DNA of 64,000 nt from Archangium lipolyticum (GTDB lineage Bacteria > Myxococcota > Myxococcia > Myxococcales > Myxococcaceae): the NCBI RefSeq assembly GCF_024623785.1, contig NZ_JANKBZ010000003.1:1-64000 (forward strand). The letters run 5' to 3'. The translations under genes were made by a program, and so were the position numbers. Shown one piece after another: positions 35,261 through 40,110 of this stretch (the first letter of the stretch is position 1; every line of letters starts with the position of its first letter). Under the pieces are notes generated by a model that saw only the letters and a program-made list of their open reading frames with translations, was not told the origin of the DNA and did no database searches.

Positions 35261-35443
35261 TCAAGGCACGGGGGACTGGATGATGTAGTAGAGCGACTGG
35301 AAGTACCGGTGCAGGGCGTTGATCAGCTGGGTGAGGAACGGCCAACCCAGCACGGTAAATCCCAGGAACGCCGCCGCGACCACAACGTACTCCACCATCG
35401 ACTGGCCGCGAGGGGCTCGCTTCAGGAGGCTGGTTCTTCTCAT
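35261..35443 (-). CDS. flp: Flp/Fap-type pilin
   Basis: The 60-residue prepilin has a basic leader MRRTSLLKRAPRG and then the class IVb core QSMVEYVVVAAAFLGFTVLG, with the Glu-Tyr at positions five and six after the Gly as expected for TadV-type prepilin peptidase. A short C-terminal tail LYYIIQSPVP follows. This is the usual size and plan of Flp pilins, the major subunit of Tad pili. Unusually, it is the last gene of the minus-strand operon rather than the first, and its ATG overlaps the stop of the Cys-rich protein (ATGA). No pilus ATPase, secretin or prepilin peptidase gene lies in the window. Confidence 0.8.
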   Translation of the reverse strand: MRRTSLLKRAPRGQSMVEYVVVAAAFLGFTVLGWPFLTQLINALHRYFQSLYYIIQSPVP

Positions 35444-35658
35444 TTCTTGCACTCCTCGGTGCACACCTTCTCCTCGTCCTTGCAGGCCTTGGTGCACTTG
35501 TCCGCGCCACTGCCCGCGTGCTTCTTGCAGATGTCCTCACACACCTTCGTGTCCTTCTGGCACCGCTTCTGGCACTCCGCGGGACGCTCCGCCGCGGCGG
35601 GGTGCGCGAGGAACAGGGCGGCCAGCAGCATCAGGGGCTTCCACAGGTTCGTCTTCAT
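35440..35658 (-). CDS. Small exported protein with two twin-CX3C motifs
   Basis: The 72-residue precursor has a signal peptide (MKTNLWKPLMLLAALFLAHP then AAAERP). The mature part of about 48 residues has eight cysteines spaced C-x3-C-x6-C-x3-C-x10-C-x3-C-x6-C-x3-C, that is two copies of a twin-CX3C unit, each separated by six residues. That layout suggests two antiparallel helical hairpins pinned by disulfides, like the CX3C helical hairpins of small mitochondrial carriers; this is a structural analogy only. It is coupled by ATGA overlaps to both neighbours and sits directly before the pilin, so a role in folding, capping or decorating Tad-type fibres is inferred. No relative is recognised. 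Confidence 0.7.
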   Translation of the reverse strand: MKTNLWKPLMLLAALFLAHPAAAERPAECQKRCQKDTKVCEDICKKHAGSGADKCTKACKDEEKVCTEECKK

Positions 35659-36530
35659 CTCGTCTTCTCCGGGGCCTCCCCTTGGGGGGCCTCCATCAAG
35701 CGCTCGGTGAGCGACAGGTAGATCATCACCTCGGGGGAGGGCGGCTGGCGGCGCAGCATCACCATCCCGCGTACCTCGCCGCGGCGCACTTCCAACTGCA
35801 CGCTGGAGTCGTCGGGAGGGCTCACCTTCTGCACCCGCCAGCCCCGCTCGATGAGGGCCTTGCTGAAGAACTCCGTGACCTCCGGCACCGTGCCATCCGG
35901 CACCCGCGCGGAGACAGTGTACTGCGTGCCGCCCTCGAGCTTGAAGGTGAGCGCCGCGGCATCCTCGGCATCCAGCGGCAGGGGAATCCACTCCGGCACC
36001 TTCGGCGGGCCCTCCAGCATGCGCGTCATCCGTCCGGACGACACGAACACCAGCGTCTCCCCGCCCTGCGCCAGCACCGACACCAGGTGGACGTCCTCGG
36101 AGGCCGGGCTCCAGTAGCCCACGTAGCCAGCGTGCTCGCTGTAGCGCTCGCCCACGGTGGGCAACCCCGCGTCCAGCAGCGTGCTGTTGTAGTGCGCCAG
36201 CACCTGGTCCGGCGTGTCCTCGGTGGAGAACCACGCCACGGCGATGGGCACGTCGGGGCCCAGGTAGTCCGCCGCGAGCACCTCCGGGCGGCTCCCGCGA
36301 GGGTAGGGCGGGAAGTGCGACAGCGCCCGCTGGAGGATCTCCTCCTGCTCGGGCGTGCGCGTGCGCCGCGCGGGCTGCGTGAGCATGTCGTCCGGCGTCA
36401 CTTGATCCATCACGTCCGCCGGGGCCTCGTACACGAGACGCTCCCAGCTGAAGCCGATCAGCCCGCCGACGACCGCCATCGAGAACAGCAGCGCCGCGGC
36501 GCGAACCGCCGGCCGCGGCTCGCCCGCCAT
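35655..36530 (-). CDS. Membrane-anchored protein of the Tad-like operon
   Basis: The 291-residue protein begins MAGEPRPAVRAAALLFSMAV followed by VGGLIGFSW, a single N-terminal membrane helix with the rest outside. The body has LAADYLGPDVPIAVAWFSTE and DQVLAHYNSTLLDAGLPTVG, then a second half with GGTQYTVSARVPDGTVPEVT and FFSKALIERGWRVQKVSPPD, suggesting two similar alpha/beta modules. No named family is recognised. The start at 36530 begins the helix and lies one base after the preceding stop. The stop overlaps the ATG of the Cys-rich gene, so expression is coupled to the pilin-type genes. Confidence 0.62.
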   Translation of the reverse strand: MAGEPRPAVRAAALLFSMAVVGGLIGFSWERLVYEAPADVMDQVTPDDMLTQPARRTRTPEQEEILQRALSHFPPYPRGSRPEVLAADYLGPDVPIAVAWFSTEDTPDQVLAHYNSTLLDAGLPTVGERYSEHAGYVGYWSPASEDVHLVSVLAQGGETLVFVSSGRMTRMLEGPPKVPEWIPLPLDAEDAAALTFKLEGGTQYTVSARVPDGTVPEVTEFFSKALIERGWRVQKVSPPDDSSVQLEVRRGEVRGMVMLRRQPPSPEVMIYLSLTERLMEAPQGEAPEKTR

Positions 36531-36531
36531 T

Positions 36532-37653
36532 TCAGCACTCCTCCGCGTTCTTGCAGCCCATGTAGTACCCGCCCCGCGCCTGGTGCGTCTTCTGGGTGCG
36601 GTCCTGGTCCCAGTCACGCCACTCGGAGTTGAAGTAGTTCTGGTTGCCGCCCTTGCCCTGGTCGATCTTCTGGGTGGGGGCCCCATTCGTCGGGTGGATG
36701 GAGATGTTGGGCTGGCGCGGATCGTCGGCGTTCATCGTCTCGGGATTCGAGTTGCCGGGGGACGACAGCGAGCCCACGAGGCCCGGGTTGAGCAGCGAGC
36801 CCGAGGCCGAGGAGAAGAAGGAGGAGGCCGACGCGGTCATCTGCGTGAAGCCGACGTTCGCGTTGTTCTGGTAGATGTTCGCCACCCGCGCGTACATGTC
36901 GCCCGAGCGCTTCTCGCCCGGGTCGAGGTCCGCCGGCTCCGTCAGCGCCCAGGTGTCGGTGATGATGGCCAGGCGCTGCTCCTTGATGAAGTAGGCGTTG
37001 CCGTCCTTGCCGCCCGTACCCTGCTTCGCGTTGTCGTGGATGCTGGTGCCCTGCCACTGATCCTTGGTGAGGTTCACCTTGCCGTGGTCATCGGAGAACT
37101 CGGGGAGGAAGCTCTTGGGCAGCAGGTAGTTCTCCACCACCAGCCGTGCCGAGCACCTGTAGAGACCGCCCTGGGTGAACTGGCCGTGGTAGTCGTTGAA
37201 CAGCGTGTCCGCGTTGACGGAGCCGGCGCCCTTCTCCGGGCCCGTGCACGTCACCTGCTTGGCGTTGGGGTTGATCCAGCACTGGTGCGCCGCCAGCGAG
37301 TCGTGGTGATCCTCTCCCTCGCAGTCGGCGTACGAGTTGAAGGCATTGCCATTCGCGTCCGTGCCCGAAGCCCTCGCGTCGTAGCGATCCCTGCCGGACT
37401 CGTGATCGCAGTACATCAGGCGGGCATGGTGCTGGACGGTGGTGGGGTCGCCCTGCTTGACGTAGTCCTGCACGGTGAGATCCCACACCGTGGAGAGGGC
37501 GGCCTCCTGCTGGTCCAGGGAGTAGCGCAGCAGGTCATCCAGGAAGATGGAGTAGAGGAAGACGGGGATGATGACCAGCATGCACAGGGCCATCTCCACC
37601 GAGGCGGCACCGCGGGCGGAGGGCCCGCGCCGGGAAGCAAGAACCTGTCTCAT
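36532..37653 (-). CDS. TadE-like pseudopilin, large
   Basis: The 373-residue protein has the TadE-type N-terminus RGAASVEMALCMLVIIPVFL (basic leader, then a helix with Glu near its start) and YSIFLDDLLRYSLDQQE. The extracellular part is long and Cys-containing (CDHESGRDRYDAR, CINPN-like region, and CKNAEEC at the very C-terminus), with a Gly/Asn/Ser-rich stretch around SASSFFSSASGSLLNPG. TadE proteins are minor pilins of Tad secretion systems. Its ATG overlaps the upstream TadG-like stop (ATGA), and one base separates it from the next gene. Confidence 0.7.
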   Translation of the reverse strand: MRQVLASRRGPSARGAASVEMALCMLVIIPVFLYSIFLDDLLRYSLDQQEAALSTVWDLTVQDYVKQGDPTTVQHHARLMYCDHESGRDRYDARASGTDANGNAFNSYADCEGEDHHDSLAAHQCWINPNAKQVTCTGPEKGAGSVNADTLFNDYHGQFTQGGLYRCSARLVVENYLLPKSFLPEFSDDHGKVNLTKDQWQGTSIHDNAKQGTGGKDGNAYFIKEQRLAIITDTWALTEPADLDPGEKRSGDMYARVANIYQNNANVGFTQMTASASSFFSSASGSLLNPGLVGSLSSPGNSNPETMNADDPRQPNISIHPTNGAPTQKIDQGKGGNQNYFNSEWRDWDQDRTQKTHQARGGYYMGCKNAEEC

Positions 37654-39176
37654 AGCGACAACCCTCCGGCGGACTGGACCAGCTGTGCGGCATCCGTGTT
37701 GTTGGCGGCGGTGAGCACCTTGCGTGCCTCGGCCTGGGTGAAGGGGTGCAACTTGGCGCGCCAGTACGGGTTGAAGAGGTTGGGAGGCTCGTTCCAGCCG
37801 TTCTGCCCGAGGCGGTGGTAGTAGACGAGCGCCCTGGAGAGGGCCGCCGCCTGGCCCGCGGCGAGGGTAATGCTGGCGGAGGAGTCGCCGTTCTCGAAGT
37901 TGACGGTGGCGGAGCTGTTGAGCTCCCAGGGGGCCTTGACCGCGTCACCCACCCGGAGGTCGTCGGTGACGTAGCTGTAGGCGCTCGGCTGGCCGAAGTC
38001 GTTGTCCTTCTGCTCGTCGGCGCGGAACTTCATGAAGCAGTTGCCGGACATGATGCAGGTGGTGAGCCCCTTGGTGTTGACGCCCTCGAACTGGTGGCTG
38101 CCGGAGTGGGCGCCGCCCGGCTTGTGGTTGCCGCTGCCGCTGTCGCTCGACACGCTCGCCTCGTAGGGCCAGACCATGGCGCCGTGCTTCCACTGGTTGG
38201 CCATGATGCCCGACTCCTCGGCGGCGATCATCTTGCCCTCGTTGCCGCCGCCCGAGCCGCCGCTCAGGCCACCGGAGGACTGCACCGTCTTGGCGGTGCC
38301 CTTGTGCACGGGGAGGGGGAAGTTGGTGCCCTCGCCGGGGATGTTGCGCACCTCGTTGAGGAAGCTGGGGTGGAGGTGGGTGGGCAGATTGCCGGTGAGG
38401 CCGCGGTTGGCGGGCCAGGTGGAGCGGGTGGCGTTGGCCACCTCGGTCATCACCTTCGCGCGCGTCTTCGTGTCCGAGCTGGCCACGCCGCCGGGGCAGG
38501 GCATGCCGTCCACCGCGCAGTTGAACTCATTGGCGTTGAGGGCGCCCACCGCGGACACCAGCGTGCTCGCCCCGGGCGCGTTGTAGTCCTTGAGCCCGCT
38601 CAGCCCGTAGGACTGGCCGTCCTTGAGCGCCTGCATGGTGTTCTTGTGCACCATGGACTGCGAGCCGTGGATGAAGTCCACCATCCGGTCCAGGCCCTTC
38701 ACGGTCTGGGTGAACTTGCTGTCCAGGTTCTTGGCCTTGTTGTCGTAGTCGGAGGCGGCCTTGCTGTACTTGCCGGCGATCTTCAGGGCCTGCAGTCCGT
38801 GGACGCAGTGCATGAAGCAGCTCCAGCAGCCGCACTGCGCGAACTCCTGGGCCATGATCACGTAGAAGTTGTTGCGCCCGGCCCGCATGATGTCACCGGT
38901 CACGCTGGCCGCGGCCATGTACCCGTGCATGCTGTTGGACGCCACGTAGGTGGCGGCGATGGACCGGTTGCTGATGGCGTAGTAGTTGAGGGCGCGCGCC
39001 TCGACCACGGCCATGGAGTAGGCCAGCGAGTCGCTGTGCTGCTGCAGGCTCATCTTCTCGCGCAGCGCGTGGCTGAGGTTGAAGCTGAGCGTCATCATCA
39101 GCGCCAGCACCAGGAAGGACAGGGCTCCGAGTACGAGCGCCTGACCACGCGCACTGCGCCGGGAGCTTCTCTTCAT
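37650..39176 (-). CDS. TadG-like protein, Tad-system N-terminal domain
   Basis: The 508-residue protein starts MKRSSRRSARGQALVLGALS, then FLVLALMMTLSFNLSHALRE, the Tad-N domain pattern (basic leader, one helix, then a helical SLAYSMAVVEARALNYYAIS). The extracellular region has an unusual CGCWSCFMHCVHG cluster, Gly-rich GGLSGGSGGGNEGK and a C-terminal helical segment ALVYYHRLGQNGWNEPP. It lacks the Glu seen after the cleavage Gly in TadE and Flp. TadG-like proteins are thought to anchor or modulate Tad pili. It overlaps both neighbours by four bases. Confidence 0.65.
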   Translation of the reverse strand: MKRSSRRSARGQALVLGALSFLVLALMMTLSFNLSHALREKMSLQQHSDSLAYSMAVVEARALNYYAISNRSIAATYVASNSMHGYMAAASVTGDIMRAGRNNFYVIMAQEFAQCGCWSCFMHCVHGLQALKIAGKYSKAASDYDNKAKNLDSKFTQTVKGLDRMVDFIHGSQSMVHKNTMQALKDGQSYGLSGLKDYNAPGASTLVSAVGALNANEFNCAVDGMPCPGGVASSDTKTRAKVMTEVANATRSTWPANRGLTGNLPTHLHPSFLNEVRNIPGEGTNFPLPVHKGTAKTVQSSGGLSGGSGGGNEGKMIAAEESGIMANQWKHGAMVWPYEASVSSDSGSGNHKPGGAHSGSHQFEGVNTKGLTTCIMSGNCFMKFRADEQKDNDFGQPSAYSYVTDDLRVGDAVKAPWELNSSATVNFENGDSSASITLAAGQAAALSRALVYYHRLGQNGWNEPPNLFNPYWRAKLHPFTQAEARKVLTAANNTDAAQLVQSAGGLSL

Positions 39177-39967
39177 GATTCGCTCCCTTTGACGAACGTG
39201 AAGATGCATTTGTTCTCCTCGGGCAGGCCGTTCTTGGTGAGGTAGAGGTTGGACTGCATCCGCATGGTGTAGGTGGCGCGGATGGGCATGATGTAGAGAC
39301 CCTTCCGGGCCGCATCGGCATAGGGATCGCCCGAGAGTCCGGCTTTGCGCGCCAGCGAGCGCTCGGCGCCCTCCGGCTTGCCCATGCGCAGCAGCTCGGG
39401 CACTTCCCGGTTGCGGGCCGTGGCGTGGATGACCCAGTTGGCGAAGGGGATGGGCATCCGGTAGTTGAACGTCACCTGGATGCGCAGCTTGGTGCGCTGG
39501 CCCTTCTGCCACTCCTCGTAGCCGCCGGTGGAGAACTCCGGGTCGTCGAAGTCCACTTCCTTCGCGGAGCCGCTGAACTCTTTCTTCAGGGGGCCGCAGA
39601 CGGTCACCTTGGCGAACTTCAGGTTCGCGTCCGGCATCTTGTTCGTCAGCACCCCGTTCCAGGACCACTTGGCCTTGAAGTCGGAGGCGCTGTTGATGGA
39701 CTTGATGTACTCGCCACCGCCGCGATCCTGGCTCACCATCGGAAGCAGCACGGCCACCGCCGCGCGCTCCATCTTCTCCTCGTTGGCGTTGTGCAGTGCT
39801 CCCGCGCGCACGGCCTTGTAGGCGGCGTACTTCGTCATCAACCGCGCCTGGTGCATCAGCCCCAGTTGCAGGATGCCGAGAATGAGGAACACGAACAGCG
39901 GTAGGACGAAGGCCGATTCCACGGCGGCCTGTCCCGACTCACGCGCAGAGCGTGGCTTGTCTCCCAT
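39173..39967 (-). CDS. TadE-like pseudopilin, first gene of the operon
   Basis: The 264-residue protein carries RESGQAAVESAFVLPLFVFL followed by ILGILQLGLM, the TadE motif with Glu after Gly-Gln-Ala-Ala-Val. The outer part contains KVTVCGPLKKEFSG, IQVTFNYRMPIPFANWVIHA, a typical strand pattern in TadE-type proteins, and ends FVKGSES. The start at 39967 (MGDKPRSARES) is preferred because it keeps the basic leader short; 39976 is a close alternative and neither has a good ribosome binding site. It begins a six-gene coupled chain to the Flp pilin. A 143-base gap separates it from the GuaB1-type gene on the same strand. Confidence 0.72.
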   Translation of the reverse strand: MGDKPRSARESGQAAVESAFVLPLFVFLILGILQLGLMHQARLMTKYAAYKAVRAGALHNANEEKMERAAVAVLLPMVSQDRGGGEYIKSINSASDFKAKWSWNGVLTNKMPDANLKFAKVTVCGPLKKEFSGSAKEVDFDDPEFSTGGYEEWQKGQRTKLRIQVTFNYRMPIPFANWVIHATARNREVPELLRMGKPEGAERSLARKAGLSGDPYADAARKGLYIMPIRATYTMRMQSNLYLTKNGLPEENKCIFTFVKGSES

Positions 39968-40110
39968 TGCACGCATATGTGGGCAATGTGGCCGAGGCCC
40001 TACTGCCCGTAAATACGCAAAGTGGCCGCGGTCCACGCCCATCCCGCACGGCCAGTCAACCGCTCCGGGGGGTAAAGTATCGGAAATCGAGGAAGAAGTG
40101 TGGGGTCCAC

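What the first reader, a model, noticed from the sequence alone, without database searches (positions are those of the whole stretch)
35440..35658. Tiny exported protein with two twin-CX3C motifs in a pilin operon
The mature protein of about 48 residues has eight cysteines spaced C-x3-C-x6-C-x3-C-x10-C-x3-C-x6-C-x3-C, exactly two repeats. This suggests two disulfide-pinned helical hairpins. It is translationally coupled to both neighbours and directly precedes the pilin. I know no bacterial family with this plan.
Basis: partly seen in the sequence, partly recalled or inferred. Interest (0 to 1): 0.75.

Follow-up and report, generated by a model that had tools for sequence, protein, structure and literature searches.

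The report
Disulfide-zipped hairpin beside predation-pilus tip
A tiny exported protein, folded as one helical hairpin predicted to be held by four disulfide bonds, is encoded within the gene cluster for the tip of the pilus that predatory myxobacteria use to kill other bacteria; it is conserved across the group, absent from the laboratory model Myxococcus xanthus, and belongs to no described protein family.

Summary
A 72-aa Sec-exported ORF (35440-35658, minus strand) has eight cysteines spaced 3-6-3-10-3-6-3 and overlaps both neighbours by ATGA. It is a real gene: homologues with the same arms occur in about half of the Myxococcaceae genomes searched and in the same operon position in two other Myxococcota families. 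The spacing never arose by chance in 1.46 Mb of six-frame translation. The structural reading is wrong. AlphaFold (pLDDT 94) gives one helical hairpin, not two. At least four lineages have lost cysteines 3 and 6 together, none has lost just one, and the centre varies in length while the arms do not. This implies nested pairs 1-8, 2-7, 3-6, 4-5. The nearest solved counterparts are nemertean neurotoxin B-IV and plant alpha-hairpinins, probably by convergence. The neighbouring pilin is the orthologue of KilO, the adapter pilin of the tip3 cluster of the Kil predation pilus, so the operon is a tip3 operon. M. xanthus has tip3 and KilO but no copy of this gene, so it was outside the published Kil work. 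Best reading: a periplasmically folded accessory of the Tip3 tip, either exported with it or helping to build it. Its molecular role is inferred, not shown.

The parts
35440..35658 (-). CYS gene: 72-aa exported protein, eight Cys, plan 3-6-3-10-3-6-3
   Evidence: homologues
35590..35658 (-). predicted type I (Sec) signal peptide MKTNLWKPLMLLAALFLAHPAAA
   Evidence: read from sequence (basic n-region, hydrophobic core, AxA before E24); not tested by a predictor
35443..35589 (-). mature domain, one helical hairpin (helices at model residues 3-24 and 26-48)
   Evidence: AlphaFold2, 30-sequence alignment, mean pLDDT 94.3
35261..35443 (-). 60-aa Flp minor pilin, orthologue of KilO (Tip3 adapter pilin), motif G-Q-S-M-V-E-Y
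   Evidence: M. xanthus orthologue is 59 aa, as stated for KilO (PMC12075869)
35655..36530 (-). UP: 291-aa single-pass membrane protein with two alpha/beta domains, conserved member of the operon, function unknown
   Evidence: conserved in nearly all clusters; AF2 model pLDDT 85.6, long N-terminal helix 7-34; no Pfam
36532..37653 (-). TadE-like minor pilin (KilL/KilM type of Tip3)
   Evidence: weak Pfam TadE, synteny
37650..39179 (-). TadG-like large minor pilin (KilN type of Tip3), 509 aa
   Evidence: Pfam PF13400 below cut-off; used for tree and named loci
39173..39976 (-). TadE-like minor pilin (first gene of the tip3 cluster; exact start uncertain)
   Evidence: Pfam TadE 6e-12, synteny

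Best explanation
The gene encodes a periplasmically folded accessory of the Tip3 minor-pilin complex of the myxobacterial Kil (Tad) predation pilus. SHOWN or strongly supported: it is a real, conserved gene of the tip3 operon; it is exported by a Sec-type signal peptide (read from sequence); it folds as a single antiparallel helical hairpin whose eight Cys line one face of each helix, consistent with four nested disulfides (C1-C8, C2-C7, C3-C6, C4-C5), of which C3-C6 can be replaced by non-Cys pairs. INFERRED: after Sec export and oxidation in the periplasm the hairpin binds the Tip3 subunits (KilL/M/N3-type pilins, KilO, or the membrane-anchored UP protein). It either rides out on the tip as a cap or cargo, as TcpF does on TcpB in Vibrio cholerae, or helps assemble the tip before extrusion. 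Because M. xanthus has a working Tip3 without it, it tunes Tip3 rather than being essential to it.
For: Operon order TadE1-TadG-TadE2-UP-CYS-Flp conserved across genera and in two other Myxococcota families (G163, G099). Of 64 distinct clusters compared, 31 carry the 8-Cys and 17 the 6-Cys form; 13 of the 16 without it fall in one Myxococcus clade. Orthology of the cluster to tip3: M. xanthus AM003 has the same cluster with a 59-aa Flp, the size and setting given for KilO/tip3 in PMC12075869. Single hairpin: AF2 pLDDT 94.3, helices 3-24 and 26-48; C3 and C6 lost together in at least 4 lineages, never singly; Cys fall within a 60-degree stripe of an ideal helix. Purifying selection at rates like its neighbours. 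Pilus precedent: TcpF docking on TcpB, cited in PMC12075869.
Against: No interaction, localisation or phenotype data exist. A CYS paralogue (CYS2) is kept where no tip cluster lies beside it (L038, L193, L197), so the family can act without an adjacent tip operon. M. xanthus Tip3 works without it. Apart from the Cys, almost no surface residue is conserved, which is odd for a fixed structural interface.
Confidence: 0.55

Rival explanations
1. Tip-borne effector: the hairpin is a toxic peptide delivered into or onto prey by Tip3, by analogy with alpha-hairpinin antimicrobial peptides and the nemertean B-neurotoxins that share the fold.
For: Kil/T3SS work calls for unknown Tip-specific effectors. 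Nearest solved sequences by profile are alpha-hairpinins (E 0.04-0.11) and neurotoxin B-IV (E 0.22, near-identical Cys plan); structure match to 1vib Z 5.3, rmsd 2.1 over 48 residues. Conserved Cys frame with variable surface.
Against: Mature peptide is nearly charge-neutral with few hydrophobic residues, unlike lytic peptides. Evolves no faster than neighbours in most pairs. Profile E-values are not significant, and the fold matches may be common helical-hairpin similarity (note).
Confidence: 0.2
2. Strictly periplasmic biogenesis factor: a small chaperone or alignment subunit for KilO, the minor pilins or UP that never leaves the cell, analogous in plan to the twin-CX3C small Tim chaperones.
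For: Sits between the membrane-anchored UP and KilO with overlapping genes; conserved over Myxococcota; twin-CX3C cores occur in small Tims (own knowledge).
Against: M. xanthus assembles Tip3/KilO without it (PMC12075869). CYS2 copies occur without an adjacent tip cluster. No conserved surface patch.
Confidence: 0.3
3. Metal-binding or redox protein (Csp-like copper store, thiol carrier, or disulfide donor for the Cys-rich tip pilins).
For: Eight Cys on helix faces, CX3C pairs as in Csp proteins; one homologue hits TIGR04401 (Csp1) at E 0.0024; a weak match to vanabin2, Z 4.4.
Against: C3/C6 are lost as a pair and replaced mostly by hydrophobics (F/V, F/A, M/A) while the other six stay, as for a structural disulfide. 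Cys content of the tip pilins does not depend on having the gene. No CXXC motif and no conserved His.
Confidence: 0.08
4. One reading: two separate disulfide-pinned hairpins (C1-C4/C2-C3 and C5-C8/C6-C7).
For: The sequence can be read as two repeats of C-x3-C-x6-C-x3-C.
Against: AF2 gives one turn, at residue 25. Joint loss of C3 and C6 would orphan C2 and C7. Arms are fixed at x6 in nearly all while the centre varies from 5 to 16.
Confidence: 0.03

Closest known systems
Kil pilus Tip3 cluster and KilO (Myxococcus xanthus, PMC12075869)
   Same: Same minor-pilin operon (TadE/TadG/TadE-like genes plus a KilO-type 59-60 aa Flp) in the window and in M. xanthus.
   Different: M. xanthus and its close relatives have no CYS gene; UP overlaps kilO directly. 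The main text of the paper names no such protein.
Neurotoxin B-IV family of Cerebratulus lacteus (PDB 1VIB)
   Same: Single helical hairpin cross-linked by four disulfides; Cys plan differs by one residue (x2 for x3); rmsd 2.1 over 48 residues. The B family likewise has six- and eight-Cys members (PMC6410017).
   Different: Animal toxin; sequence E-value 0.22, so homology not shown; different context. Convergence is the default.
Plant alpha-hairpinins (e.g. PDB 2M6A, 7QXJ, 5LM0)
   Same: Central C-x3-C-x10-C-x3-C helix-loop-helix with two nested disulfides.
   Different: Four (or six) Cys, shorter, plant precursors; here an extra CX3C on each arm at x6.
Small Tim twin-CX3C chaperones
   Same: Helical hairpin held by nested disulfides between two CX3C motifs (own knowledge).
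   Different: Four Cys, longer helices, mitochondrial; no sequence match found here.
Csp copper storage proteins (TIGR04401)
   Same: CX3C pairs inside helices (own knowledge); one homologue hits at E 0.0024.
   Different: Four-helix bundle with reduced Cys binding Cu(I); here two helices and evidence for paired disulfides.

Membership tests
Kil tip3 operon | TadE/TadG/TadE-like minor-pilin genes orthologous to the M. xanthus cluster | tested here: met
   M. xanthus AM003 TadG 55% identical, same gene order
Kil tip3 operon | KilO-type short Flp pilin in the cluster (59 aa in M. xanthus) | tested here: met
   59-aa orthologue in M. xanthus AM003; 60-aa protein in the window
Kil tip3 operon | the CYS gene is part of the tip3 set in the model organism | tested here: not met
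   absent from the M. xanthus cluster, UP and kilO overlap directly
Kil tip3 operon | function in predation | not testable with these tools
   needs genetics in a strain that carries the gene
Alpha-hairpinin | C1-x3-C2-x(4-20)-C3-x3-C4 helix-loop-helix | tested here: met
   central four Cys fit; AF2 hairpin; motif definition from PMC11591084
Alpha-hairpinin | only four (or six, x3-spaced) Cys | tested here: not met
   eight Cys with x6 spacing on each arm; bacterial
Alpha-hairpinin | homology by sequence | tested here: inconclusive
   profile E 0.04-0.11
Cerebratulus B-neurotoxin | 8-Cys helical hairpin with four cross-links | tested here: inconclusive
   hairpin and Cys plan fit, one spacing differs by one residue; the disulfides themselves are inferred, not measured
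Cerebratulus B-neurotoxin | homology by sequence | tested here: inconclusive
   E 0.22
Cerebratulus B-neurotoxin | neurotoxic activity | not testable with these tools
   no assay; nothing suggests it
Csp copper storage protein (TIGR04401) | match to the family model and four-helix bundle | tested here: not met
   window protein has no hit to the model; two-helix hairpin
TIGR04117 Cxxx-repeat radical SAM target | score over curated cut-off (50 bits) | tested here: not met
   17.1 bits, E 0.0045
Flp/Tad pilin | prepilin peptidase motif and hydrophobic alpha1N helix | tested here: not met
   CYS has a Sec-type signal and no GQ(A/S)MVEY-like motif

The most novel reading that the evidence does not exclude
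The hairpin is one of the missing Tip-specific effectors of myxobacterial predation: a four-disulfide peptide carried out on the Tip3 end of the Kil pilus and delivered to prey, having converged on the scaffold that ribbon worms use for a venom peptide.
Probability: 0.17. Interest if true: 0.88.

Novelty: new variant of a known kind. Interest (0 to 1): 0.6.

Why it matters
How the Kil pilus kills, and which cargo goes with which tip, is an open question in bacterial predation. A conserved extra gene in the tip3 operon that the model species lacks has escaped genetic study, and it can be tested directly by deletion in Corallococcus or Archangium. It also defines a bacterial protein family with natural 8-Cys and 6-Cys forms, useful for studying periplasmic oxidative folding.

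Tried and rejected
Two-hairpin model: rejected. Chance pattern in a high-GC frame: rejected. RNA feature: no Rfam hit in the window. Known family: Pfam, NCBIfam and PHROGs gave nothing over cut-off. Disulfide helper for Cys-rich tip pilins: Cys counts of TadE1, TadG, TadE2 and UP do not depend on having the gene. Foldseek against the PDB gave no match at E<=0.001; the 1vib match came from the VIA second look, is not above helical background, and is used only together with the sequence profile. The UP model gave no convincing fold. The C14 protein with plan 3-10-3-15-3-10-3 was considered as support for coupled arm lengths, but its homology to CYS is unproven, so it is only noted. The tree-aware sign test on four independent C3/C6 pairs cannot reach significance (p 0.125). 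Literature searches for a Cys-rich small protein in Tad loci found nothing.

Full report
WHAT IS THERE. The ORF at 35440-35658 (-) encodes 72 residues with a Sec-type signal peptide and a 49-residue mature part holding eight Cys at C-x3-C-x6-C-x3-C-x10-C-x3-C-x6-C-x3-C. Its ATG overlaps the stop of the 291-aa UP gene and its stop overlaps the ATG of a 60-aa Flp pilin, both as ATGA. Upstream on the same strand lie TadE-, TadG- and TadE-like minor pilins. I call the gene CYS here.

REAL AND CONSERVED. A protein search found it beyond the genus at once. A profile found it in 49 of 96 Myxococcaceae genomes and in 14 of 26 genera, but in only 3 further Myxococcota genomes. The operon order TadE1-TadG-TadE2-UP-CYS-Flp recurs across genera and in two other families of the phylum (G163, G099). 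In 1.46 Mb of six-frame translation the exact spacing plan with a 4-16 residue centre occurred in 39 distinct sequences, all of this family by appearance, and never in shuffled ORFs. Pairwise dN/dS is mostly 0.22-0.65, in line with neighbouring genes; one pair was 1.27 and one pair had no synonymous change to divide by.

ONE HAIRPIN, NOT TWO. AlphaFold2 on the mature domain with 30 sequences gave two helices, 3-24 and 26-48, at mean pLDDT 94.3. Positions 1, 5, 12 and 16 of an ideal helix lie within a 60-degree stripe, so four Cys of one helix can face four of the other. Independent evidence comes from nature. Among 54 distinct sequences, 35 have all eight Cys in register, 15 lack exactly C3 and C6 (F/A, F/V, M/A, F/L, S/M, N/F, L/R), one more (L178) does so by eye, and three are small indel variants that keep eight Cys. 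None lacks only one of the two. On a TadG tree the 6-Cys state needs at least four changes. The tree-aware sign test has only four pairs and so gives p 0.125; the Fisher value there ignores relatedness. The central loop varies from 5 to 16 residues while the x6 spacings stay fixed in nearly all, the reverse of what two hairpins would show.

WHICH OPERON. The M. xanthus tip3 cluster contains kilO, a predicted 59-aa Flp adapter pilin needed for Tip3 function (PMC12075869). M. xanthus AM003, found by name with the TadG alignment, carries the same cluster, ending in a 59-aa Flp. Unnamed single-contig genomes of one genus code (g23, taken to be Myxococcus) carry it near 1.41 Mb, about where mxan_1150 would lie if genes are evenly spread (inference). 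So the window operon is a tip3 operon and its Flp is the KilO orthologue. The tip operon itself holds no Tad secretion core; a CpaB/RcpC homologue sits on another contig, as expected from the split kil clusters. In M. xanthus UP and kilO overlap directly and CYS is missing. Of 16 clusters without CYS, 13 form one Myxococcus clade.

WHAT IT DOES. Function is inferred. Fixed place in the operon, Sec export, purifying selection and a rigid oxidised fold suggest an accessory of Tip3. Export with the tip has a precedent in TcpF/TcpB (cited in PMC12075869). The alternatives are a periplasmic assembly factor, an effector peptide, or a metal/redox role; the last is disfavoured by paired loss of C3/C6 with mostly hydrophobic replacements and by unchanged Cys content of the tip pilins. 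Retention of a second copy, CYS2, where no tip cluster is adjacent (L038, L193, L197) shows the family can be used apart from the operon.

COMPARISON. No Pfam, NCBIfam or PHROGs family covers it. A profile search of solved structures gives, without significance, plant alpha-hairpinins (E 0.04-0.11) and nemertean neurotoxin B-IV (E 0.22), whose Cys plan differs by one residue. The model aligns to B-IV at Z 5.3, rmsd 2.1 over 48 residues, within the range of ordinary helical hairpins. I take these as the same scaffold reached independently, not as membership.

LIMITS. Disulfides are inferred, not measured. Partner and activity are untested. AF2 was run on the monomer only. The paper's supplementary gene tables could not be read here, so identity with tip3 rests on the main text, the 59-aa length and synteny.

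Noticed in passing
G000:C14:123974-124180 (L002; L054:7903-8205 -) and L027: Another exported 8-Cys protein of the window's genus with plan 3-10-3-(13 or 15)-3-10-3: both arms longer by four residues, not in a tip operon. Homology to CYS unproven.
   Followed up: partly
L119, L120, L127, L142, L144, L145: Several Myxococcus genomes carry a second, tandem tip3-like cluster with its own Flp but without UP and CYS.
   Followed up: no
L038, L193, L197; also L037, L039-L042 downstream of Flp: A CYS paralogue (CYS2) kept where the tip cluster is absent, with intact 8-Cys plan.
   Followed up: partly
window 35655-36530 (-): UP: conserved single-pass membrane protein with two alpha/beta domains and no Pfam family; no convincing fold match.
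   Followed up: partly
L147 (BNCN01000002.1): Record titled Comamonas sp. KCTC 72670 holds a Myxococcus-type tip3 cluster; probably mislabelled or contaminated.
   Followed up: no
L165:3174-4727: Two adjacent CYS-like genes with one-residue shifts in Cys spacing, next to a tip cluster.
   Followed up: no
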